Source of the DNA: Selenomonas bovis DSM 23594
GTDB lineage: Bacteria; Bacillota; Negativicutes; Selenomonadales; Selenomonadaceae
DNA length: 55,767 nucleotides
Direction: 5' to 3'
NCBI RefSeq assembly: GCF_000381005.1
Contig: NZ_KB908395.1
Location: 1-55,767 of the forward strand
Shown piece after piece: positions 8,430-22,626 of the stretch. The position numbers and the translations under genes are program-made. The notes beneath the pieces are model-generated. The model saw only the letters and a list, made by a program, of their open reading frames with translations, had not been told where the DNA came from and did not search any database. The first letter of the stretch is position 1. The number at the start of each line of letters is the position of its first letter.

Positions 8430-9143
8430 ATGAGGAAGAATACAATGCGTATGGCGGGAATCCTGGCAGTGGAGATGCTTTTTGCCACAGGGATGGCAGG
8501 TGCGGCGGCTCCCGTGAGCGCAGCAGATCATACGACTGCCGCATCAGGTGCAACAGCGGCCGCAACACCGCAGACGTCCACTGCGCCTGCCGCCGCTGAG
8601 GCGGGGGAATCCCAGCAGGTGCCGTCGCAGGAAAAGGAGCAGGCGGCATCGCAGGGAAGAGCGCGTGCCATCGACATCCAGATGGATTATTTCGAGGGGC
8701 GCTTTTTCAAGGAACGCAACATCGACCTCTACAACCTCCACGTCTTTTGGCAAAACCGCACGGTGCATCACCTCAAGACCTACTACGGGCTGACTGTTGA
8801 GCGCGCCGTCGGCTGCACGACGAAAGACGGCATCTACCGCGACTCCGAGGCCGTCGGCCTCGGCCCGGCCGTCCAGCTGCGCTGGGAGCGCCCGCTCGGC
8901 GGAAAATTCACAGGCAGCATCGACGGCACCGGCTCGTTGCTTCTCTACAATCACGCCCATCCCGCCGACGGACGCGCCTACGGCTTCCTCTGGCGCATCG
9001 GCCCGCGCCTCACATATCACTATACATCTCGCGATGCCGTCAGCCTCGCCTACATGTTCCATCACTCCTCGAACGGTATGAAGGACCATAACCCCGGCTA
9101 CAACGGCGTCGGGTTCTCTCTGGGGTACGAGCATCGTTTCTGA
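8430..9143 (+). CDS. PagL-like lipid A 3-O-deacylase, outer membrane
   Basis: A 237-residue exported protein. Residues 1-31 form a signal peptide (basic start, apolar core, APVSAADH cleavage region), followed by a low-complexity Ala/Thr/Gln linker to about residue 70, then a region of alternating beta strands ending in Phe as outer-membrane barrels do. The C-terminal FHHSSNGMKDHNPGYNGVGF resembles the PagL (PF09411) active-site segment, in which H-x-S-N supplies catalytic His and Ser. PagL removes the 3-O acyl chain of lipid A. At the place of the third catalytic residue (Glu in Pseudomonas PagL) I see Asn in NPGYNGV, so activity is uncertain. AAGGAAG lies at suitable distance from ATG 8430. 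It is monocistronic and not related to the adjacent cas genes. Confidence 0.75.
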   Translation: MRKNTMRMAGILAVEMLFATGMAGAAAPVSAADHTTAASGATAAATPQTSTAPAAAEAGESQQVPSQEKEQAASQGRARAIDIQMDYFEGRFFKERNIDLYNLHVFWQNRTVHHLKTYYGLTVERAVGCTTKDGIYRDSEAVGLGPAVQLRWERPLGGKFTGSIDGTGSLLLYNHAHPADGRAYGFLWRIGPRLTYHYTSRDAVSLAYMFHHSSNGMKDHNPGYNGVGFSLGYEHRF

Positions 9144-9203
9144 TGGCTGGGCGACGTAGATCACGCAAGCATGCGTGCGTTCGATGAGAAAGGAGTTTTG
9201 TTT

Positions 9204-10223
9204 ATGGTTAGGGAACAAAGGGAATATTTAACGCCGACAGACTTGAAACATATTCTTTTTTCTAAACGTGCGAATCTATATTATCTCGAGAAATGCCGCG
9301 TCATGCAGAAAGACGGTCGTGTCCTATATCTGACGCAGGGCAAGAAGGAAAACTGCTATTACAATATCCCCATTGCGAATACGACAACCATTCTGCTGGG
9401 GACTGGAACATCAATCACACAAGCGGCTGTGCGGATGCTTTCCGCCGCGGGAGTCTTGATTGGCTTCTGCGGCGGAGGCGGCACGCCGCTTTTTGCTAGC
9501 ACGGAAATCGAGTGGCTGAGTCCGCAGAATGAATATCGCCCCACTCAGTATGTACAAGGCTGGCTGGCCGGCTGGTGGGAGGAGGACAAGCGGCTTGCCG
9601 CGGCGAAAAAGTTCCAGCTTGCGCGGTGTAGTTTTCTCGAAACTGTTTGGAACCGAGATGCCGATCTGGCGGAAAATGGCATCGACGGAGAGGACGAGGC
9701 GGTGGAAAGCGCCTTGGAAACGTACCGCCATAATATCCAAAGAGCGCAGGATGTCCAGCATCTGCTTACCCATGAGGCGCATTTCGCCAAATCCCTGTAT
9801 GCCTATGTAGCGGAAACTATGGATGTAGAGGATTTTGTGCGCAATCCGCGTGGCGGCGATCAGGCCAATAGGAATCTCGATCAGGGGAATTATCTCGCCT
9901 ATGGTCTGGCGGCTTCGGCCCTCTGGGTACTTGGTATCCCGCATGGCTTTGCGCTCATGCATGGCAAGACGCGGCGCGGCGCGCTGGTATTTGATGTCGC
10001 AGATCTCGTGAAAGATACGCTGGTGCTGCCATTTGCCTTTATCGCGGCGAGCGAGGGACTGAGTGGACAGGAATTTCGGGAGATGTGCCTCAACAAGCTT
10101 GTCGAGCATAAAGCCTTGGACTATATGTATGAAAAAGTCAAAGCGCAAAGCCTGGCATGGAAGGAGGAAAAGGAACATCATGATGATCCTCATCGTCAGT
10201 CAGAGTACGAAGAAGGCAATTAA
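9204..10223 (+). CDS. cas1: CRISPR-associated endonuclease Cas1, subtype I-F
   Basis: A 339-residue integrase that, with Cas2 (here fused to Cas3), inserts new spacers at the leader end of the array. The I-F Cas1 core is visible: LTPTDLKHILFSKRANLYYLE near the N-terminus, LGTGTSITQAAVRML and CGGGGTPLF, and the catalytic region GIPHGFALMHGK followed by RRGALVFDVADLVKD, which supplies the conserved His and Asp. ATG 9204 is chosen because AAAGGAG precedes it by 8 nt; the longer frame from 9171 lacks a site. It is first in the operon and its last 44 nt overlap cas2-3. A + T content rises at about this gene and stays high through csy4. Confidence 0.96.
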   Translation: MVREQREYLTPTDLKHILFSKRANLYYLEKCRVMQKDGRVLYLTQGKKENCYYNIPIANTTTILLGTGTSITQAAVRMLSAAGVLIGFCGGGGTPLFASTEIEWLSPQNEYRPTQYVQGWLAGWWEEDKRLAAAKKFQLARCSFLETVWNRDADLAENGIDGEDEAVESALETYRHNIQRAQDVQHLLTHEAHFAKSLYAYVAETMDVEDFVRNPRGGDQANRNLDQGNYLAYGLAASALWVLGIPHGFALMHGKTRRGALVFDVADLVKDTLVLPFAFIAASEGLSGQEFREMCLNKLVEHKALDYMYEKVKAQSLAWKEEKEHHDDPHRQSEYEEGN

Positions 10224-13200
10224 GACCACGCGCTGGATTCTCGATGCTTTCGCCGAGCGCGTTGGCACGGATGTCTGGCGGACTGTGATTACAGAGGAAG
10301 GCCTCCGTCAGGTGAAATCCCTTTTGCGCCAACATGCTACGAAAGATATGGCTGTGGCCTGTCATTGGCTCCGATCCCGGCATCAGAGCGAGCTTCTCTG
10401 GATCGTTGGCAACCGCAGTCGCTTCCGTGCAGATGGATGCGTTCCTGTGAATCAGACGGCAAAGGATCCGCGTCATCTCGACTGGGAAAACCAATGGGAG
10501 CGCATGCCGTTGCTGCAGGCACTCGTCGGCGTAGCGGGCCTTCTGCATGACTGGGGGAAAGCCAACGACACCTTTCAGGGAAAATTGACCGACAGAAGTG
10601 TCACGGATCCATATCGGCATGAGTGGCTTTCTTGCTGCCTGATCCGCGCACTTGTCCAGATGTCTGCTGATACAGGGGAAGATCAGGGATGGCTGGAACT
10701 CCTGGAGCAGGAGCATCTGCCGGAAGAAGAGCTGATCGCAGGTGTGACAGCACATCATACGGAAAAGCTGACGGGTCTGCCGCCAGCTGCACGGCTGATC
10801 TGCTGGCTCATCCTTTCGCATCACCGTCTGCCCACGCTTGATGAGGAAACAGCCAAAAATTATCGCGGTGCAGAAAAATTGGGGGATGAAGCAATCATAT
10901 CCCTGCTCGATGCCTCCTGGAGCTATCGGAAGAAAACAGAGGCAGACGCCGTCTCCTTTTCGCATGGTCTGCTGGATGACTCGAAACTCTGGCATGCGAA
11001 GCTTCGCAAGTGGTGCAGCCGTTTGCAGGAAAATCTGTCTGCGCTTGAAAAATGCCGCGAGGAGAACGCCTTGCGCCCCTTGATGATTTATGCGCGGCTT
11101 TCCCTCATGTTGGGGGACTACACCTGCTCGTCGCAGCCGGCGGCAGCAGAATGGACGGGACAGACACGGCTTTTTGCCAACACATGGCAGGGGCAGAAGA
11201 AACAGAAACTGGATGAGCATCTCATCGGCGTTGCCCGCACGGCCGTACATAGTGCCTACGCTCTTCCGCGCCTGCCGCAGGAGGCTGAGCGCGTGCATCA
11301 TGTTACGGCCCTGCGGCGCAAAAGCCCGAAGCGTTTTGTCTGGCAAGATAGAGCGGCTGCCAGACTGTCCCTGCTGCGGGAGAAGGAGCAGAAAGAGAGT
11401 GGCAATGCCCCGCACTGGTTCATCGTGAACATGGCCAGTACTGGCTGCGGTAAGACTTTTGCCAATGCCAAGATCATGCAGGCCATCTCTGAGGACGGCG
11501 ATTCCCTGCGATATAGTCTGGCCCTCGGACTGCGCACCCTCACTTTACAGACCGGCGATGAGTATCGCCAGCGTGTCCACCTCGAGCCGGATGAGATGGC
11601 AGTACTCATTGGCTCTGAGGCGGTAAAGGAATTGCACGTGAAAGAACAAATGCAGGAAGAGCCCAGCCTTCATACTGAGGCGCAGGATTCCCTGGTACAG
11701 GGAGAACTCAACGGTATCTTCCCACAACAGGATGAGTTCTTGCAGGTGCTCTTTCCTGCTGGCAGCAGAAAAGAGCGCGCGCTCCTCTATGCGCCGGTTC
11801 TCGTATCGACCATTGACCACCTCATGCCGGCGGTAGAATGTACGCGCGGCGGGCGTTATCTTCTGCCCATGCTCCGCCTGCTTTCTACTGACCTCGTCAT
11901 CGATGAGGTCGACGACTTTGCCGTACCAGACATGTATGCGATTGCGCGTCTCGTGCATCTTTCGGGAATGTTCGGCAGGAACGTGCTGATTTCCTCGGCT
12001 ACCATTCCGCCTGATCTGGCGCAGGCACTCTTTTCTGCCTATCAGAGCGGTCTTGCCTGTTGGCAGGCCTTTTTCAGGCAGCCCGCGTCGCTTGCCTGCG
12101 GTTTCGTCGATGAGTTTTCTGCGCAGGATGCCCTGCTGTCTGCCAGCGGACAGACCTTTGAGATGGTTCAGCAGGGATTCCTCAAAAAGCGCATCAGCCA
12201 TCTCCAAAAAGTACCTGCCAAGAGGAAGGGCGTTCTCGTTGATTGCGAGGAAGCCGCCAAAAAGGAGAGCGGAAAAGAAAAGCAGGAGGCTTATTTTGCT
12301 GCTATCAAAGGGGCAATCCTCTCCCTGCATGAACAGCACGGTTGGAAGGATAAAGAAACGGGCAAAAAAATCTCCATTGGTATGGTGCGGCTGGCAAATA
12401 TCACGCCATGTGCGGCGCTTGGTAAATATCTGCTCCAGACACCTTTTCCCAAAGATATTGCACCACGCTTCATGGTCTATCACAGTCGGCAGGTTCTGCT
12501 CCTGCGCCACGAGCAGGAAGCCTATCTGGACCGGGTACTGAAGCGGAAGGAAAAGGCGGCGACTGAGTACGAGGTCAAAGACCCTATGATGCGGCACTGC
12601 ATCGATCAGGCGAAAGAAAAGGAACTCATCTTTTTGGTGATTGCCTCGCCGGTCGAGGAACTTGGCCGTGACCATGATTTCGACTGGGCGGTCGTCGAGC
12701 CTTCCTCCTACAGGTCCTTTATCCAGCTTTCCGGGCGTGTTTTGCGTCATCGGCAGATTTCTGCAGCGATTCGTCTTCCCAATGTCGCCATTATGAGATA
12801 TAATTTAAAAGGAATTGAAAATTCGCAGAAAAACTCCTTTGCCCGACCGGGCTATGAGGAGGGAGATTATTTGCTGCATACGCATGATCTCGCCGCACTC
12901 GTAGATACGGAAGCACTGGCATCCGGAATCGATGCGGTTCCGCGCATTTGGAAACGTGAGCCACTGCATCCCAAAGACAGTCTCATCGACCTTGAGCAGC
13001 AGGTTATGGCTGATTTTCGTAATCTGACGGAGCTCGGCCCGGCTTGCCTTCATGGTTGGCAGCAGGAAGACTGGTGGATGACAGGTCTACCGCAGCGGCT
13101 GCATCCCTTCCGCAAGGGGGAGGAGGATTTAGAGCTTTATCTGAGGCTCAACAACAAGAGGATTGTTTTTTACCAAAAGGGAGAGCGGGGAAATCCCGAT

Positions 13201-13458
13201 CAGGAAATAGAAAAAATCTATCGCATCCAGCAGGAGGAAGACCCGCCTTCCGACCGTTTCTGGCTGGCGCGCAGCTATGAAAAGAGCCTCCGTGCGCTGG
13301 TCGAGCAGGAGATGGCAGAGGAACTCACCGAGGAAGATCTGAAGCGGGCTGCACGGAAATATGGTGTCATCGCCTATCCGGCGTATTGGGAGAACAGTTC
13401 CCGGATTTGCCGCTATTCCGATCAGTTTGGCCTTTATCAGGACAGGCCTGAGATGTAA
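10180..13458 (+). CDS. cas2-3: Cas2-Cas3 fusion, subtype I-F
   Basis: A 1092-residue fusion typical of I-F. Residues 1-95 are Cas2 (MMILIVSQSTKKAIKTTRWI...), needed for spacer integration. Next is the HD nuclease (LLHDWGKAND around residue 125, AHHTEKL, SHHRLP), then an SF2 helicase with Walker A STGCGKT, DEVD-box IDEVDDF, motif III SSATIPP and motif VI LSGRVLRHR, and a C-terminal domain. It is recruited by Cascade to unwind and shred target DNA. The start lies inside cas1 (44-nt overlap), with AGGAGG about 11 nt upstream; MM gives two adjacent ATG choices. All catalytic motifs look intact. Confidence 0.96.
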   Translation: MMILIVSQSTKKAIKTTRWILDAFAERVGTDVWRTVITEEGLRQVKSLLRQHATKDMAVACHWLRSRHQSELLWIVGNRSRFRADGCVPVNQTAKDPRHLDWENQWERMPLLQALVGVAGLLHDWGKANDTFQGKLTDRSVTDPYRHEWLSCCLIRALVQMSADTGEDQGWLELLEQEHLPEEELIAGVTAHHTEKLTGLPPAARLICWLILSHHRLPTLDEETAKNYRGAEKLGDEAIISLLDASWSYRKKTEADAVSFSHGLLDDSKLWHAKLRKWCSRLQENLSALEKCREENALRPLMIYARLSLMLGDYTCSSQPAAAEWTGQTRLFANTWQGQKKQKLDEHLIGVARTAVHSAYALPRLPQEAERVHHVTALRRKSPKRFVWQDRAAARLSLLREKEQKESGNAPHWFIVNMASTGCGKTFANAKIMQAISEDGDSLRYSLALGLRTLTLQTGDEYRQRVHLEPDEMAVLIGSEAVKELHVKEQMQEEPSLHTEAQDSLVQGELNGIFPQQDEFLQVLFPAGSRKERALLYAPVLVSTIDHLMPAVECTRGGRYLLPMLRLLSTDLVIDEVDDFAVPDMYAIARLVHLSGMFGRNVLISSATIPPDLAQALFSAYQSGLACWQAFFRQPASLACGFVDEFSAQDALLSASGQTFEMVQQGFLKKRISHLQKVPAKRKGVLVDCEEAAKKESGKEKQEAYFAAIKGAILSLHEQHGWKDKETGKKISIGMVRLANITPCAALGKYLLQTPFPKDIAPRFMVYHSRQVLLLRHEQEAYLDRVLKRKEKAATEYEVKDPMMRHCIDQAKEKELIFLVIASPVEELGRDHDFDWAVVEPSSYRSFIQLSGRVLRHRQISAAIRLPNVAIMRYNLKGIENSQKNSFARPGYEEGDYLLHTHDLAALVDTEALASGIDAVPRIWKREPLHPKDSLIDLEQQVMADFRNLTELGPACLHGWQQEDWWMTGLPQRLHPFRKGEEDLELYLRLNNKRIVFYQKGERGNPDQEIEKIYRIQQEEDPPSDRFWLARSYEKSLRALVEQEMAEELTEEDLKRAARKYGVIAYPAYWENSSRICRYSDQFGLYQDRPEM

Positions 13459-13472
13459 AGGAGGAAAGATGC

Positions 13473-14675
13473 ATGAGTATATTTCTGGATTTTTTGCAGG
13501 AAAAGGCAGACAAGAAGAAAAAAACAAAGGAGGAATGGCTGCAGGCAACGGCCCAAAATGCTGATAAGTGCCTTTTTGCGACACATATCGGTCGCTTTAC
13601 TCATCCGAGCATTGACACAAAAGTGTCTTTTAGTGCGGGTACCCCATTAGTGCGTGTGACGGGGGTTGTTTCCTCCGCCGGCACCTGCATGGAAAAAGAC
13701 GTAGCAACTGGGGCAAATTATCTGAGTACGGCGGATCTGGCATCTCTCGTACTGGAAAATGGCAAGACTGTATATGAGAATCTTCAGGAAGACAATCCAA
13801 ACCTAAAAGACGATTTTTCGGCGCTTGCTGTTGACTATGATGAGATACGGGAAAAACTGCTTCAGATACCTGAGCATCATGTTCCGGAGGCAACCGATAA
13901 TCGGCTGAAGCAGGTTTATTTCCCTGTTGATGGGGAAGGACAGTATCATCTGCTTTCCGTGCTGCCGCCGTCCAGTCTGACGGCGGAGCTGCAAAAGCGG
14001 ATCAGGCAGGAGGACACCGCAGCGCGGGAGACCAAGGACAGCAAATCAGAAAATTACGGCCGCCCATATGACTTTGTGGCGGAACGAGTGGAATATAGTG
14101 TCGGCGGTACAAAGCCGCAAAACATTTCCCGGCTCAACAACTTACTGCATGGAACATTTTCTGCCTTGCTTTCTCTGCCTCCCCAGTTGAGCTCGGATGC
14201 GGTCAGAAAACCCCATCGGGATTTCTTTCAGGAAACGCTTCGGGATCTATACTATGATTCGTCGTTCTCCGATCATATTTTTGCGGTACACGACCTGCTC
14301 TTAGTGGATCGGAACAATAAAGATATTCGTCTGACATTGCGCCGACGGGAGGATGAGCTGATCGATGCGGTCATCTGGCAGGCTATGGCACTTCAGCAAC
14401 TGCCGGGAGGCTGGACTGGAGCAGCAGAGAATCAGCTTCCGAAAGAACAGAAAATTTGGCTCGACCAGGCCTATGAAGAGGAGCGGCAGCAGGGCGGCTG
14501 GGAAGATATCATTGCCGGACAGATCGCCAGCTGGCTGTTGCGGGCCTATCGCCGCAAGTGTCAGGACAAGGCTGTGGTACTCGACGATGAAGTATGGAAA
14601 AATCTGCGTAAAAATGCCTTGTCGGCATTGCGGGACGATCTCGCAGACAACGCAGGAGAAAGGGGAATGATCTGA
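13473..14675 (+). CDS. csy1: Type I-F Cascade large subunit Csy1 (Cas8f)
   Basis: A 400-residue Csy1, which with Csy2 caps the 5' end of crRNA and helps recognise the PAM. The conserved EYSVGGTKPQNISRLNNLL segment (about residues 208-226) is the family hallmark, and DFFQETLRDLY and AWRRK-like C-terminal basic stretches (LLRAYRRKCQDK) are also present. ATG 13473 follows AAAGGAGGAAAG. It begins 14 nt after cas2-3 and overlaps csy2 by one base (TGATG), so the two are translationally coupled. Somewhat shorter than gammaproteobacterial Csy1 (about 430). Confidence 0.94.
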   Translation: MSIFLDFLQEKADKKKKTKEEWLQATAQNADKCLFATHIGRFTHPSIDTKVSFSAGTPLVRVTGVVSSAGTCMEKDVATGANYLSTADLASLVLENGKTVYENLQEDNPNLKDDFSALAVDYDEIREKLLQIPEHHVPEATDNRLKQVYFPVDGEGQYHLLSVLPPSSLTAELQKRIRQEDTAARETKDSKSENYGRPYDFVAERVEYSVGGTKPQNISRLNNLLHGTFSALLSLPPQLSSDAVRKPHRDFFQETLRDLYYDSSFSDHIFAVHDLLLVDRNNKDIRLTLRRREDELIDAVIWQAMALQQLPGGWTGAAENQLPKEQKIWLDQAYEEERQQGGWEDIIAGQIASWLLRAYRRKCQDKAVVLDDEVWKNLRKNALSALRDDLADNAGERGMI

Positions 14676-15589
14676 TGAGCAGACAATATATCCTGCTCCC
14701 GCATATCGTCGTCCATAACGCCAATGCCATGAGCAGCACCTATACGGTCGGCTTTCCCGCTATGACAGCCTGGCTCGGCGCGTTTCACAGGATGGAGCGT
14801 GAGTTGAGGCGGAAAGACTGTCCAGCCTTGCGAATTACCGGCGTGGCCGTTGCCTGTGAGCACTTTCATCTGCAGCAGTATCAAAAAAATAAATTTGCGC
14901 CGATCAATTTGGCTATGACGGCCAATCCACTAAAAAAGAGTAAAAAAACAGGAGCCTATGAACGTCCGCCTTTTATCGCTGAAGCTCGCTGCGACATAAG
15001 GGTATCCTTTATCTTGAGGACAGAAGGGATAGAAGCAGAACAGTCGGATGATCTGAAAGAACGGATGCTTTCCCTTTTGGCGAGGCAGAAGCTGGCCGGC
15101 GGTGATATTGTATCCTTGCCAGAGAAGAAGCAGATACAGATGAAGCATCTGGAGGGCAGTGCAGAGGAGAGGAAGTTTATGCGGCGTCTCATGCCGGGCT
15201 TTGTCCTTGTTGAGCGAAAGGATCTTTTTGAAGCTTTAGAAGGCGATGATCTCGACAAACTGCTGACGGCGGTTTCTCTCCACGCTGAGCCTGTTTTAGA
15301 TGAAACAACCGGCAAGATTGAAAAGTGGATGTATAGAAAGAACCTCGCGCAGGGCTGGGTGGTGCCGATTGCCGTTGGCTATCGGGATCTCTCCGGGGAT
15401 AAGGCTCTGCACGTTGCAAATCAGCGCGATCCGCAGACAGAGCATCATTTCGTCGAACCTCTGGTCACCTTAGGAGAGTTCAAAATGCCCTACCGCTTTG
15501 AGCGGATCGAGGAGATTCTCTGGACCTATCACTATGGTCAGAGCCGCGGGCTCTATGAATGTGTCAATGACATATCAAAGGAAAGCTGA
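14675..15589 (+). CDS. csy2: Type I-F Cascade subunit Csy2 (Cas5f)
   Basis: A 304-residue RAMP-fold protein that pairs with Csy1 at the crRNA 5' handle. The N-terminus YILLPHIVVHNANAMSSTYT and the following FPAMTAWLGAFHRMERELR match the Csy2 pattern (PHI-x-x-NAN...). The glycine-rich MPGFVLVERKD segment and the C-terminal HYGQSRGLYECV are also in keeping. Its start overlaps the csy1 stop. Downstream, 50 nt separate it from csy3, which has its own strong ribosome site. Confidence 0.93.
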   Translation: MSRQYILLPHIVVHNANAMSSTYTVGFPAMTAWLGAFHRMERELRRKDCPALRITGVAVACEHFHLQQYQKNKFAPINLAMTANPLKKSKKTGAYERPPFIAEARCDIRVSFILRTEGIEAEQSDDLKERMLSLLARQKLAGGDIVSLPEKKQIQMKHLEGSAEERKFMRRLMPGFVLVERKDLFEALEGDDLDKLLTAVSLHAEPVLDETTGKIEKWMYRKNLAQGWVVPIAVGYRDLSGDKALHVANQRDPQTEHHFVEPLVTLGEFKMPYRFERIEEILWTYHYGQSRGLYECVNDISKES

Positions 15590-15639
15590 GTTCATCCGTG
15601 CTTCCCTGCGTATCAAGTAAAATAAAAGGAGAAATTATC

Positions 15640-16695
15640 ATGGCAAAAGCAAAAAACAACATTCCTTCCGTACTGGCTTTCGAGAAAAAACTCGTCCCCT
15701 CAGATGGCTTTTTCTATGGCACGACTTGGGAGAATCGTCTGGACGCCGCCAGCAGCCGTCCTCTTTCCCTGGTAGAAAAGGCCGTGCGTGGCACGATTTC
15801 CAACCGCCTTTCTGCGAAGGACGCCGATCCGGCTAAACTCAATGCTAAGATGGAAGTGCCGAACTTGCAGCGCGTGGATTCCTGTGCCCTTGGTATGGAG
15901 CAGGATACGTTGCGCCTTTCCTTCACGCTCAAGGTCCTGAGCGGCATCGCGCATCCATCGGCATGCAATTTGCCGGAGTTCCAGGAAAGCTACGAAAAGA
16001 CTGTCAAGGCCTATATGGAGCAGTACGGCTTTCGCGAAATTGCCCACCGCTATGCCATCAACCTGGCCAACGGCCGTTATCTTTGGCGCAATCGTCTGAG
16101 CGCGGAAGAAATCGAGGTTCATGTCACAGACGATGTGCATACATGGATCTTTTCCGCCTATGACTTTCCATGGAAAGATTTTGAGGAAGACGATCTTACG
16201 GATGAAGAAAAGCAAGGCGTCAAAGAGCTTGCGGCAGAGATTGCTGATGCTCTGTGCGGCAAAAAGAGCAGTGCCTTCTTCCACATCGATGCCTATGCTC
16301 GGGTAGGGGAAGGGCAGGAAGTTTATCCCAGTCAGGAACTCGTACTCGATACTAACAGCCGGAAAAATGAAAAGGGGAAAAAGAGCAAGATCCTTTATCA
16401 GGTGGACGGCATCGCGGCCATGCACAGCCAGAAGATTGGCAATGCCCTGCGCACCATTGATACCTGGTATCCTGCCTATGAGAAAAAACTCGGTCCGATT
16501 GCGGTCGAACCGTATGGTGCCGTGACTAGCCGGAGTCAAGCGTTCCGTACTTCAAAAGAAAAGGCTGATTTCTATACCCTGTTCGATTCGTATGCTTTGG
16601 GGAATCAGCTTTCCACCGAAGAAGATGAACACTACGTCATGGCCATGCTCGTGCGCGGCGGTGTCTTTGGACAAGGGTCAAAGGAGAATGAATGA
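15640..16695 (+). CDS. csy3: Type I-F Cascade backbone Csy3 (Cas7f)
   Basis: A 351-residue RAMP protein; six copies are expected to coat the crRNA spacer. Family landmarks: IPSVLAFEKKLVPSDGFFYG at the N-terminus, NPSVLAFERKLdpSDa-type in relatives; VPNLQRVDSCALGMEQDTL; and AVEPYGAVTSRSQAFR near the C-terminus. ATG 15640 follows AAAAGGAG; the frame upstream to 15598 is open but has no ribosome site. Its strong site suits the high subunit number. It overlaps csy4 by 4 nt. Confidence 0.95.
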   Translation: MAKAKNNIPSVLAFEKKLVPSDGFFYGTTWENRLDAASSRPLSLVEKAVRGTISNRLSAKDADPAKLNAKMEVPNLQRVDSCALGMEQDTLRLSFTLKVLSGIAHPSACNLPEFQESYEKTVKAYMEQYGFREIAHRYAINLANGRYLWRNRLSAEEIEVHVTDDVHTWIFSAYDFPWKDFEEDDLTDEEKQGVKELAAEIADALCGKKSSAFFHIDAYARVGEGQEVYPSQELVLDTNSRKNEKGKKSKILYQVDGIAAMHSQKIGNALRTIDTWYPAYEKKLGPIAVEPYGAVTSRSQAFRTSKEKADFYTLFDSYALGNQLSTEEDEHYVMAMLVRGGVFGQGSKENE

Positions 16696-17264
16696 TGAAA
16701 TATTATCAAGAGCTGACTCTGCTGCCAGACTCCGAAATACCTCTCTTTGCCCTTTGGAGCAAAGTCTATGAAACTGTCCACATCGCTTTGGCGGAAGACG
16801 GCAGCGGCGAGATAGGCATCTCTTTTCCGGATTATGGAGATACGGCGTTCCCTTTGGGAGATAAAATAAGGATCATTGCTTTCTCGGCGGAAACTTTGGA
16901 ACAGCTGCAGTTGAAAAAGAAGCTGAACCGGTTGCAGGATTACTTGCACATGAAAAGCGTCAAACCGGTGCCAGAGAAAAAAGTCCATTCCTATGCCAGT
17001 TACAGCCGCTGGCACAAAGAGAATACGAAAGAGCAGAAAGTGCGCCGCTACCTGAAGCGCCACAGCGATGTGACTGAAAAGGAGGCAAGGGACCTGTTCC
17101 CAGGGAATCAATACGGCAAGGAACCGCCGTTTGTCCAGATGAAGAGTTGCTCTAACCATCACCGCTATCAACTATATATCAAAAGAACGGAGAAGCAAGA
17201 AGAGGTGAATGGTCTGTATACTACCTTTGGTTTGTCCATGGATGCGACGGTCCCTGAGTGGTAA
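16692..17264 (+). CDS. csy4: CRISPR pre-crRNA endoribonuclease Csy4 (Cas6f)
   Basis: A 190-residue Cas6f that cuts pre-crRNA at the 3' base of the repeat hairpin and stays bound. The expected catalytic histidine is His30 in YETVHIAL (equivalent to His29 of Pseudomonas Csy4). The arginine-rich helix that reads the hairpin groove is seen as EQKVRRYLKRHSDV (about 117-130), and the C-terminus FGLSMDATVPEW matches the family end. It overlaps csy3 by 4 nt and is followed by the array leader. The substrate hairpin in the repeats (CCGCC-GTGTA-GGCGG) is the classic Csy4 type, so enzyme and repeat agree. Confidence 0.95.
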   Translation: MMKYYQELTLLPDSEIPLFALWSKVYETVHIALAEDGSGEIGISFPDYGDTAFPLGDKIRIIAFSAETLEQLQLKKKLNRLQDYLHMKSVKPVPEKKVHSYASYSRWHKENTKEQKVRRYLKRHSDVTEKEARDLFPGNQYGKEPPFVQMKSCSNHHRYQLYIKRTEKQEEVNGLYTTFGLSMDATVPEW

Positions 17265-17474
17265 AATACCAAAATTTTTTAGGTAGTAGGAAGCCCGTGA
17301 AATATAGAGGCTTGTCAACGATGAAAAATTTTTGGTAAAATAAAAAGGTCGGTTGCAATACCCTGTAATGATGGGCTTTTTTGCTTGTGTATATGCAGTG
17401 AACAGCCGTGTAGAGTGAACCGCCGATTACTGTTACCTCTAGGTACATCTGCTGTTCGTGAACCGCCGTGTAGG
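17265..17474 (+). promoter_or_regulatory. CRISPR leader with degenerate repeat fragments
   Basis: The 210 bases between csy4 and the first intact repeat are AT-rich in the first half, as leaders are. Three partial repeats occur before the array: GTGAACAGCCGTGTAG at 17398-17413, GTGAACCGCCG at 17415-17425 (then diverging), and GTGAACCGCCGTGTAG at 17458-17473, which abuts repeat 1. Offsets between fragments and the real repeats are 60 nt (17398 to 17458; 17415 to 17475), the array period. No sigma-A promoter was clear to me; orientation (leader at the csy4 side) is judged from repeat strand, intact repeats here and a decayed terminal repeat at the far end. Confidence 0.7.
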
Positions 17475-18462
17475 GTGAACCGCCGTGTAGGCGGCTTAGA
17501 AAATTATACCACGTTTTCAGTCAGCCATCGATTAGTGAACCGCCGTGTAGGCGGCTTAGAAAATTGCATACATTGCCTTTCTGTATGCAACCCTGTGAAC
17601 CGCCGTGTAGGCGGCTTAGAAAATGCCGTCGATATTGTCTGCCGCTTCGCCGTGGTGAACCGCCGTGTAGGCGGCTTAGAAAAGAAACAGGTTCAGAACT
17701 TCGAGTGGTACGTTGTGAACCGCCGTGTAGGCGGCTTAGAAAAGCATCCCGGGCGGAAAGCCCAATCGCCGAACGTGAACCGCCGTGTAGGCGGCTTAGA
17801 AATTTCGCGTGATCTTCCACAAACTCGCCGTTCTGTGAACCGCCGTGTAGGCGGCTTAGAAATAAAGGATGTAGCCGAGTATCTTGAGTACGAGGTGAAC
17901 CGCCGTGTAGGCGGCTTAGAAATTCGCCGCCTTAGTCACTTCCTGCGGCTTCCCGTGAACCGCCGTGTAGGCGGCTTAGAAAGTCTGGACGGCCTGCACG
18001 ACACGGAACTTGATGTGAACCGCCGTGTAGGCGGCTTAGAAAGCAACGAGTGCAGAATTTGATAGCCATGATAAGTGAACCGCCGTGTAGGCGGCTTAGA
18101 AATTCAGCACTGCGGCGCGCTTGCTCTCTTCCGCGTGAACCGCCGTGTAGGCGGCTTAGAAATGTGAGACTTGTACGGCGTGATGTCCTCCCACGTGAAC
18201 CGCCGTGTAGGCGGCTTAGAAATGTCAAGCAAGCGGCAAAGAAAGCCGCAAGCAGTGAACCGCCGTGTAGGCGGCTTAGAAATATCATGGGAAACGCCCT
18301 TTTTCTTTCGCCTAGTGAACCGCCGTGTAGGCGGCTTAGAAATGCGACATCTCCTCCTCGGCGTAGAGAAAGAGGTGAACCGCTCGAAAAGCGTCCAGGC
18401 GTGAACGGTGAGTTTCCTCGGCGTAGAGAAAGAGGTGAACCGCCGTGTAGGCGGCTTAAAAA
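17475..18462 (+). CRISPR. Type I-F CRISPR array, 15 identical repeats plus decayed end
   Basis: The 28-bp repeat begins GTGAACCGCCGTGTAGG and ends CGGCTTAGAAA. Fifteen identical copies start at 17475 and every 60 bp to 18315, so all spacers are exactly 32 bp, the I-F size. Repeat bases 6-10 and 16-20 form the CCGCC/GGCGG stem with a GTGTA loop that Csy4 recognises. A seventeenth slot, 18375-18402, keeps only the first 9 bases; the last, 18435-18462, has one change (AAAAA for AGAAA at the end). Fourteen spacers lie between perfect repeats, and one more (18343-18374) precedes the decayed slot. Transcription is expected on the plus strand. I found no match of a spacer to the rest of this window. 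Confidence 0.98.
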
Positions 18463-21895: not shown

Positions 21896-22626
21896 TGGCG
21901 CGCTACACGGCATCTGCACTGGTTCTCGGCGTGCACAACTGGGGCGATGCGGATAAGATCGTCACGCTCTTCACACGGGAGCGCGGACTCATCCGGGCCG
22001 CGGCCTTCGGCGCGCGCCGCCCGAAAAGTCCGCTTGCAGCGGGACTGCAGATGTTCAACGAGATCGAGGCGGAGCTCACGGAGGGACAGCGGCTTGATAC
22101 GGTGCGGACGGCCTCACTGCTCCATCATCCGAAGAAGCTCAGCGAGGATCTTGCGGCGATGTCCTACGGCTCGTTCGTCGCGGAGCTCGTGCGCGAGTTC
22201 CTGCCGGAGAAACAGCCGGAGCCCGCGATCTACACACTGCTCGGCAAGGTGTTCGCGGCGTTCGAGACGCGCAACGCACGCATTGTCGCACTCGTGGCCG
22301 CGTATCAGCTCATGGAGCATACGGGGCTGCAACTCTCCTATGAGCGCTGCGCACATTGCGGGAAATTGCTGGAGGGGGACGCTTTTTTCAGCGAACAGGC
22401 GGGCGGCGCGCTCTGCGCGGAGGATAGGGCCGCGGATGCCGTGCCCTATCCGGCGCAGTTGCGGGAGTTCCTCGCGCGCATCTTTGCCTATGACTGGCGA
22501 CCAAATGCGTCGTCCACGGTCACGCGGGACAATCTCCTCGCGGCGGAACAGATGCTCATCGGCTACTTGCAGCGGCTCTTAGGGCATCCACTCAAATCGC
22601 TCGTCTTCATCCATCAGCTGGGGTGA
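21895..22626 (+). CDS. recO: DNA repair protein RecO
   Basis: A 243-residue RecO, which helps load RecA onto SSB-coated DNA in the RecFOR pathway. An N-terminal OB fold (YTASALVLGVHNWGDADKIVTLFTRERG) is followed by a helical domain carrying the CAHCGKLL zinc motif near residue 150. Only part of the four-cysteine set is clear: CxxC plus Cys in GGALCAED. The start ATG overlaps the DUF502 stop. It is the last gene of the tightly packed block. Confidence 0.94.
   Translation: MARYTASALVLGVHNWGDADKIVTLFTRERGLIRAAAFGARRPKSPLAAGLQMFNEIEAELTEGQRLDTVRTASLLHHPKKLSEDLAAMSYGSFVAELVREFLPEKQPEPAIYTLLGKVFAAFETRNARIVALVAAYQLMEHTGLQLSYERCAHCGKLLEGDAFFSEQAGGALCAEDRAADAVPYPAQLREFLARIFAYDWRPNASSTVTRDNLLAAEQMLIGYLQRLLGHPLKSLVFIHQLG

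What the first reader, a model, noticed from the sequence alone, without database searches (positions are those of the whole stretch)
9204..18462. Complete type I-F CRISPR-Cas locus in a Firmicutes-lineage chromosome, with lower GC than its surroundings
All six I-F genes and an array with 28-bp repeats and 32-bp spacers are present. Known I-F systems are mostly in Proteobacteria. The cas block is visibly AT-richer: a 60-base line inside csy1 (13801-13860) has 26 G+C, one inside recO (22021-22080) has 36. This supports acquisition by transfer while Csy4, repeat hairpin and catalytic motifs all remain intact.
Basis: partly seen in the sequence, partly recalled or inferred. Interest (0 to 1): 0.55.

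Follow-up and report, generated by a model that had tools for sequence, protein, structure and literature searches.

The report
CRISPR memory locus with jammed entry
This is a complete, ordinary-type bacterial CRISPR immune locus that belongs to a lineage shared by many relatives of this bacterium rather than a fresh import, but the end of its memory array where new entries are written carries a small duplication that was probably copied once by the writing machinery and may make every new entry unreadable.

Summary
The locus is real: cas1, cas2-3, csy1-csy4 and an array of 28-nt repeats and 32-nt spacers at 9204-18462. It is type I-F1 and not rare here: csy3 is in 35 of 380 genomes of the class, two of them with only the HNH variant. 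Class Cas1 (27 of 27 rows) and effectors (32 of 32) each lie on one side of a branch, beside gammaproteobacterial I-F, partly plasmid-borne. Inside the class Cas1 breaks the species tree. Transfer is supported, but as an old entry plus circulation. The block is AT-richer than its flanks, like 23 of 26 kin blocks. Of 86 arrays examined only this one has repeat fragments there. Best reading: a leader-anchored 28-bp ruler, in a host with one HU and no IHF pair found, leaving an array that can be read but not usefully extended. An assembly error is not excluded.

The parts
9204..10223 (+). cas1 (Cas1f integrase)
   Evidence: TIGR03637 447.7 bits, cut-off 150; aligns to a solved type I-F Cas1 with the E, H and DxxD-region residues in place (residue roles recalled)
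10180..13458 (+). cas2-3 fusion (integrase subunit and helicase-nuclease), overlaps the end of cas1
   Evidence: TIGR02562 870.3 bits, cut-off 565.95, and PF21384 Cas2 domain at the N end; HD, Walker A and DEVD stretches align to solved Cas2/3 (motif names recalled)
13473..14675 (+). csy1 (Cas8f)
   Evidence: PF09611 218 bits; below the TIGR02564 cut-off
14675..15589 (+). csy2 (Cas5f)
   Evidence: PF09614, TIGR02565 182.5 bits, cut-off 154.1
15640..16695 (+). csy3 (Cas7f); start inferred within ORF 15598-16695
   Evidence: PF09615, TIGR02566 409 bits, cut-off 157.55
16692..17264 (+). csy4 (Cas6f, crRNA-processing nuclease)
   Evidence: PF09618, TIGR02563 139.3 bits, cut-off 36.25; a His and a Ser that are catalytic in Csy4 (recalled) are aligned with solved Csy4
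17265..17397 (+). leader, 133 nt, with inverted repeat 17267-17280 / 17324-17337 (13 of 14 complementary)
   Evidence: 25 of 29 kin leaders measured are 128-132 nt
17398..17425 (+). A: chimeric 28-nt leader-adjacent unit (first 17 nt of a repeat with 2 substitutions, then first 11 nt of a repeat)
   Evidence: fold -1.3 kcal/mol against -10.4 for an intact repeat
17426..17457 (+). S0: newest spacer, exactly 32 nt
   Evidence: no other match in 189 family genomes with up to 3 mismatches
17458..17485 (+). B: second copy of the chimeric unit, 26 of 28 identical to A, running 11 nt into the first intact repeat
   Evidence: (family D2)
17475..18342 (+). 15 identical repeats with spacers S1-S14 between them (60-nt period)
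18343..18462 (+). trailer end: S15, broken repeat 18375-18402 (15 of 28), S16 (last 20 nt same as S15), last repeat 18435-18462 (27 of 28)

Best explanation
A type I-F1 CRISPR-Cas system of a lineage that probably entered this bacterial class once, from the gammaproteobacterial side (inferred; the root was not fixed), and has since moved between families of the class. Its interference arm looks intact: the older spacers can be cut out by Csy4 and guide the Csy complex and Cas2-3 (inferred from known I-F biology). Its writing end is damaged. First, 17 bp at the leader border of the first repeat were duplicated in tandem (inferred). Later Cas1-Cas2/3 inserted one more 32-nt spacer (S0) at the leader border and, measuring 28 bp from that border, copied the leader-adjacent 28 bp straight across the duplication (inferred from the two 28-bp copies 60 bp apart, which are shown). 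The copied unit lacks the 3' arm of the hairpin and the CTTAGAAA handle, so S0 should not become a normal crRNA, and any further spacer would inherit the same defective unit: the array can be read but not usefully extended. In the genome one HU protein and no IHF pair were found, and the IHF site seen at position -97 in leaders of sister systems is not seen at that place in its leader.
For: Genes and array. One side of a branch: Cas1 27 of 27 class rows, support 100/97, joined at 99/94 to Acinetobacter, Methylomonas and Methylobacter rows (five plasmid loci and one contig filed as phage); effector proteins 32 of 32, 99. Movement within the class: f33 needs 5 changes on Cas1 and 1 on UvrA. Leader border: 25 of 29 kin leaders end 128-132 nt after csy4 and the window's chimeric unit starts after 133 nt. 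A and B are 28 nt, 26 of 28 identical, exactly 60 nt apart with a 32-nt spacer between. Of 86 arrays examined, including the window's, only the window's has an exact copy of the first 10 nt of its repeat in the 150 nt before the first repeat. Hairpin: A -1.3, B -6.9 with other pairing, intact repeat -10.4 kcal/mol. HU/IHF family: one protein in the genome, best to HU-beta and below all IHF cut-offs shown. IHF site at -93 to -100: 0 of 29 class leaders exact, 5 of 13 proteobacterial leaders exact, window 4 mismatches.
Against: One array in one draft assembly (75 contigs); no reads and no second strain, so an assembly error in a repeat-rich place is not excluded. The order of events is inferred; a repeat lesion followed by gene conversion would give the same letters. 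A preprint reports that swapping the I-F repeat for the I-E repeat lowers the second integration step (PMC12259127, section 12 read), which would make integration into a chimeric repeat less likely. The array search needed an exact 10-nt prefix and would miss diverged fragments; two other arrays (L073, L142) hold a broken repeat inside the array. The five exact IHF sites are all in Acinetobacter or Psychrobacter records; one class leader (L065) has an exact IHF consensus at another place, -54, and four class leaders come within one mismatch at -93 to -100. The HU-beta model's own cut-off is not reached either (113 against 157). In the effector tree the Acinetobacter plasmid rows L130 and L132 fall with the enteric rows, not beside the class, so the sister group differs between modules. 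Only one integration is recorded after the lesion. No protospacer was found for any spacer tried, so activity is not shown.
Confidence: 0.6

Rival explanations
1. The leader-end oddity is an assembly error: reads from repeats were joined wrongly and the true first repeat is normal.
For: The genome is in 75 contigs, and the place is repetitive; of 86 arrays examined only this one shows it. S0 is found nowhere else in 189 family genomes, so no second record supports the unit.
Against: The pieces are exactly 28, 32 and 28 nt in register, and A differs from B by two substitutions, which a mere misjoin of identical reads would not produce. S0 is unique sequence joined to a leader of the usual length.
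Confidence: 0.2
2. The array had an ordinary first unit (repeat, S0, repeat) and was damaged afterwards by two events: a 17-bp duplication in the second repeat and copying of its changed part into the first repeat by gene conversion.
For: Gives the same final letters; array recombination is known in general (recalled).
Against: The converted stretch would have to end exactly at the repeat-spacer border, where the two copies share no further sequence; it needs one event more than slippage plus one normal integration.
Confidence: 0.15
3. A, S0 and B form a CreR-like guide, a degenerate mini-array that represses the cas promoter.
For: Degenerate repeats around a spacer between leader and array resemble such elements (recalled).
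Against: S0 has no better seed match to the cas1 upstream region (9101-9300) than shuffled versions: 7 of 10, the commonest value in 300 shuffles. B is not an independent repeat but overlaps the first intact one.
Confidence: 0.03
4. The cas block is a recent import from a proteobacterium.
For: Lower GC than its flanks; csy3 not found in the 6 other same-genus genomes. Window Cas1 is as close to some proteobacterial plasmid Cas1 (up to 63.7 percent) as to many class members (59-68 percent over near full length).
Against: The class rows stand together with 100/97 support apart from every proteobacterial row in the tree (32 rows), and the window lies inside them; 23 of 26 kin blocks are also AT-richer than their flank.
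Confidence: 0.05

Closest known systems
Type I-F1 CRISPR-Cas (Pseudomonas aeruginosa, Pectobacterium, Acinetobacter)
   Same: All six genes, gene order, Cas2-Cas3 fusion, 28-nt hairpin repeat, 32-nt spacers, inverted repeat in the leader
   Different: Lies in a diderm Firmicutes-type genome with one HU and no IHF pair found; no IHF site at -97; leader-end repeat broken
Plasmid-borne I-F of Acinetobacter, Methylomonas and Methylobacter (L130-L134; L131 has an I-Fv effector)
   Same: Cas1 rows joined to the class at 99/94; leaders of 131 nt
   Different: IHF consensus at -97 with 0-2 mismatches; on plasmids; effector proteins of L130 and L132 fall elsewhere
Selenomonas HNH-Cascade (Cas8-HNH)
   Same: I-F1-derived effector; three genomes of the window's family carry a locus of this kind or like it (L094-L096; HNH tested in L095)
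   Different: HNH domain in Cas8 (L095) and no cas1 or cas3 match in the fetched regions; the window system has the ordinary Cas8f and Cas2-3

Membership tests
Type I-F1 CRISPR-Cas | Cas1f | tested here: met
   TIGR03637 447.7 bits, cut-off 150
Type I-F1 CRISPR-Cas | Cas2 fused to the N end of Cas3 | tested here: met
   PF21384 and TIGR02562 on one ORF
Type I-F1 CRISPR-Cas | Csy1 (Cas8f) separate from Csy2 (Cas5f) | tested here: met
   PF09611 and PF09614 on separate ORFs; Csy1 is below the TIGR02564 equivalog cut-off, 137 against 169.4
Type I-F1 CRISPR-Cas | Csy3 and Csy4 | tested here: met
   TIGR02566 409 bits, TIGR02563 139.3 bits, both above cut-off
Type I-F1 CRISPR-Cas | 28-nt hairpin repeats with 32-nt spacers | tested here: met
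   not met at 17398-17485 and 18375-18402
Type I-F1 CRISPR-Cas | CC PAM beside protospacers | tested here: inconclusive
   7 of 17 spacers scanned in viral contigs; one seed hit, 22 of 32 and no CC
IHF-dependent I-F adaptation | IHF alpha and beta in the host | tested here: not met
   one PF00216 protein in the genome, best to HU-beta and below the IHF cut-offs
IHF-dependent I-F adaptation | IHF site phased in the leader | tested here: not met
   window 4 mismatches at best in the -93 to -100 stretch; 2 at best anywhere in the leader
HNH-Cascade | HNH domain in Cas8 and no Cas3 | tested here: not met
   Csy1 hits PF09611 only; Cas2-3 present
CreR-like cas regulator | spacer-like element with seed match at the cas promoter | tested here: not met
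   7 of 10 seed positions, the commonest value in shuffles

The most novel reading that the evidence does not exclude
A natural experiment in spacer integration: a type I-F Cas1-Cas2/3 complex, in a cell without an IHF pair, completed a full integration at a first repeat that lacked its normal 3' half and still duplicated exactly 28 bp. That would mean the repeat length is measured from the leader border and does not need the repeat's 3' arm, and that a small slip there converts a CRISPR array into self-perpetuating read-only memory.
Probability: 0.5. Interest if true: 0.5.

Novelty: new member of a known kind. Interest (0 to 1): 0.38.

Why it matters
The damaged leader end matters more: it offers a ready-made DNA substrate to ask how I-F integrase sets repeat length and whether the repeat's second arm is needed, a point on which a 2025 preprint (PMC12259127, section 12 read) stresses the repeat sequence. 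It also shows a simple route by which an immune memory could stay readable while losing the ability to learn. The lack of an IHF pair in the host, together with the lack of the phased IHF site, makes the class a place to test how I-F adaptation works without IHF.

Tried and rejected
The one seed hit (S3) matches 22 of 32 and has no CC, so it was rejected. Ten of the 17 spacers S0-S16 were not scanned there. Within the window no spacer of S0-S15 has a second match above 22 of 32; the rest of the genome was searched for S0 only.

First spacer base: in the 14 spacers S1-S14 it comes in runs (AAAAATTTGGTTTT), p 0.0015, the lowest of 343 tests; for S1-S15 p is 0.0006 and with S0, S15 and S16 added 0.0004. 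This could have meant a 29-bp duplication. Pooled over arrays with at least 6 spacers there is no excess (568 observed, 562.3 expected in 1758 pairs), so it was set aside as chance or unexplained.

Empty-site test: six same-genus stretches upstream of phoH hold no uvrA, PagL or cas match, so no empty site could be read.

Rows dropped: from the careful Cas1 tree, nine of 35 kin regions (seven without a cas1 match in the fetched stretch: L067, L074, L087, L088, L094-L096; two fragments: L071, L076), and L057, L058, L061, L144, L145, L146 (all but L061, a fragment, were in the first tree, where the class rows also stood together, 27 of 27, 98). From the effector tree, L076, L094-L096 and the proteobacterial rows L043, L131, L136, L138, the distant ones, and L139, which had no hit for at least one of the four genes. 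From the UvrA tree, G269 (fragment) and G342 (its only hit was a distant one); UvrA was sought in 30 genomes and 29 rows, the window included, entered the tree. Leaders could be read in 29 of 35 kin regions and 13 other loci. An earlier count said 19 of 33 genomes with one HU/IHF protein; the table gives 18 of 33.

The named set comes from a scan with six exact peptides of the window's Cas1 and is not a survey: it lists no class member although many exist.

A search of the held library for 'type I-F', 'Negativicutes' and 'CRISPR' together gave no paper. In the listings of the other searches (titles and starts of abstracts, 1 to 15 rows shown of up to 165) I saw no report of such a leader-end lesion. 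The library lacks most subscription journals.
Full report
What is there. The window holds a complete type I-F1 locus at 9204-18462: cas1, cas2-3, csy1, csy2, csy3, csy4 on the + strand, then a leader and an array. Each protein passes at least one curated model; Csy1 reaches only 137 bits on TIGR02564 (cut-off 169.4) while passing PF09611. Alignments to solved Cas1, Cas2/3 and Csy4 show the catalytic stretches in place (the residue roles are recalled). The array has 15 identical 28-nt repeats from 17475 and a last one with 27 of 28. No other array with this repeat was found in the genome (first 21 bases, up to 3 mismatches).

Where it belongs. csy3 is found in 35 of 380 genomes of the class, the window's included, in 16 of 102 genera, and in none of the 6 other genomes of the genus. 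Two of the 35 (G244, G253) have only a copy of the variant type described below, so 33 carry an ordinary one. In 299 genomes sampled from the phylum, 2 reach the Cas1f cut-off, the window's own and one more of its family. One anchor is that kin genome G253 (same family) carries a Cas8-HNH matching a solved Cas8f-HNH chain over 342 residues with 596 bits (which names no organism); the HNH-Cascade studied in two papers comes from Selenomonas (PMC10910872 and PMC11459484, passages seen).

Origin. I fetched 35 kin regions, 21 named loci from genome contigs and 17 loci from plasmid and phage records. In the careful Cas1 tree (59 rows), all 27 class rows form one side of a branch with support 100/97, joined at 99/94 to I-F loci of Acinetobacter, Methylomonas and Methylobacter. 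The concatenated effector proteins give the same split, 32 of 32 class rows, 99, but there the neighbours are L133, L134, L135 and L143, and the Acinetobacter plasmid rows L130 and L132 fall with the enteric side. The modules thus disagree on the sister group. By identity alone, the window's Cas1 is 59-68 percent like near-full-length class rows, up to 63.7 percent like plasmid rows and 51-55 percent like the enteric ones. A single old entry from the gammaproteobacterial side is the simplest reading, but the root was not fixed. Within the class the Cas1 tree needs 5 changes of the label f33 (7 rows; starred branches force 4; 64 of 500 shuffles reach 5 or fewer), whereas the UvrA tree needs 1 (6 rows, 99). 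Genomes G139 and G334 of different families have almost the same Cas1. None of the 35 kin stretches has a phoH or PagL match. The locus therefore moves within the class.

Composition. Cas genes have GC 0.48-0.55 and GC3 0.53-0.61; uvrA, phoH, era and recO have GC3 0.78-0.88 and the PagL gene 0.74. In 23 of 26 kin loci the cas block is also AT-richer than its flank on the cas1 side, by 0.057 on average over all 26. The difference marks the block as mobile or as having its own make-up; it does not date the arrival.

The leader end. In 25 of 29 kin loci the first repeat starts 128-132 nt after csy4; the other four have 142, 146, 150 and 198 (which looked up to 260 nt). In the window the first intact repeat starts after 210 nt, but at 133 nt lies a chimera: the first 17 nt of a repeat (two substitutions) followed by the first 11 nt of a repeat, 28 nt in all (A, 17398-17425). 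Then come exactly 32 nt (S0, 17426-17457), and then again 17 nt plus the first 11 nt of the intact repeat (B, 17458-17485). A and B agree at 26 of 28 and are 60 nt apart. The simple history is: a 17-bp tandem duplication at the leader border of the first repeat, then one spacer integration that copied the leader-adjacent 28 bp across the duplication, then two substitutions. If the second cut were set by the 3' arm of the repeat, the copy would have been 45 bp. Of 86 arrays examined, including the window's, no other has an exact copy of its repeat's first 10 nt in the 150 nt before its first repeat; two (L073, L142) have a broken repeat inside the array.

Consequences. A folds at -1.3 kcal/mol and B at -6.9 with different pairing; the intact repeat at -10.4. 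A also lacks the CTTAGAAA that becomes the 5' handle (recalled). S0 should thus not give a normal crRNA, and further spacers would copy A. These are inferences from known Csy4 biology; no expression data exist here.

Adaptation without IHF. The genome has one HU/IHF-family protein, closest to HU-beta and below all IHF cut-offs shown, as it is below the cut-off of the HU-beta model itself. Of 33 class genomes with ordinary I-F, 18 have exactly one such protein, 12 have two and 3 have three (some drafts are incomplete). At -93 to -100 from the first repeat, 5 of 13 proteobacterial leaders hold an exact WATCAANNNNTTR, all at -97; of 29 class leaders none does, 4 have one mismatch, and the window has four. 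The five exact cases are all Acinetobacter or Psychrobacter records, and one class leader has an exact site elsewhere, at -54, so this is suggestive only. The consensus is recalled. The window's leader keeps an inverted repeat, 13 of 14; 1 of 30 shuffles of the leader reached its score, and in 12 of 29 class and 5 of 13 other leaders at most 1 of 30 of their own shuffles reached theirs. A preprint describes conserved I-F inverted repeat motifs as contacts of Cas2 and IHF as critical for folding the leader (PMC12259127, passages and section 12).

Verdict. The array's leader end is the part worth following.

Noticed in passing
L094, L095, L096 (genomes G244, G253, G266): Three kin genomes carry an I-F variant with csy3 and csy2 but no cas1 or cas3 match in the fetched stretches. 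L095 reads csy3-cas6-cas8-HNH-csy2 and its Cas8-HNH matches a solved HNH-Cascade protein; the other two were not examined gene by gene.
   Followed up: partly
17503-18374: The first base of successive spacers comes in runs (A, then T, G, T), p 0.0015 for 14 spacers, lowest of 343 tests, but no such effect is seen in pooled arrays.
   Followed up: yes
18343-18462: The two oldest spacers share their last 20 nt and the repeat between them is broken while the 60-nt register is kept. Unexplained.
   Followed up: no
L143 (CAKLQF020000007.1): A record filed as Acinetobacter phage carries a full set of I-F genes among chromosome-type genes such as hemL and thiE; it looks like a bacterial contig.
   Followed up: no
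L077 and L082 (genomes G139 and G334): Nearly the same Cas1 in two families of the class whose UvrA is far apart: a fairly recent transfer.
   Followed up: partly
L130, L131, L132, L136: Plasmid I-Fv loci (L131, L136) have a Cas1 that groups with I-F1 plasmid and class rows, and L130 and L132 change sides between the Cas1 and effector trees: adaptation and effector modules seem to have been exchanged.
   Followed up: no
upstream of phoH in L124, L127, L128, L129: By eye the ORFs upstream of phoH are not the same in the four same-genus stretches listed, and none is like the window; the place may be a rearrangement hot spot.
   Followed up: partly
L063, L068, L072, L076: These kin loci have repeat arrays between cas2-3 and csy1; in L068 it is the only array found in the stretch.
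   Followed up: no
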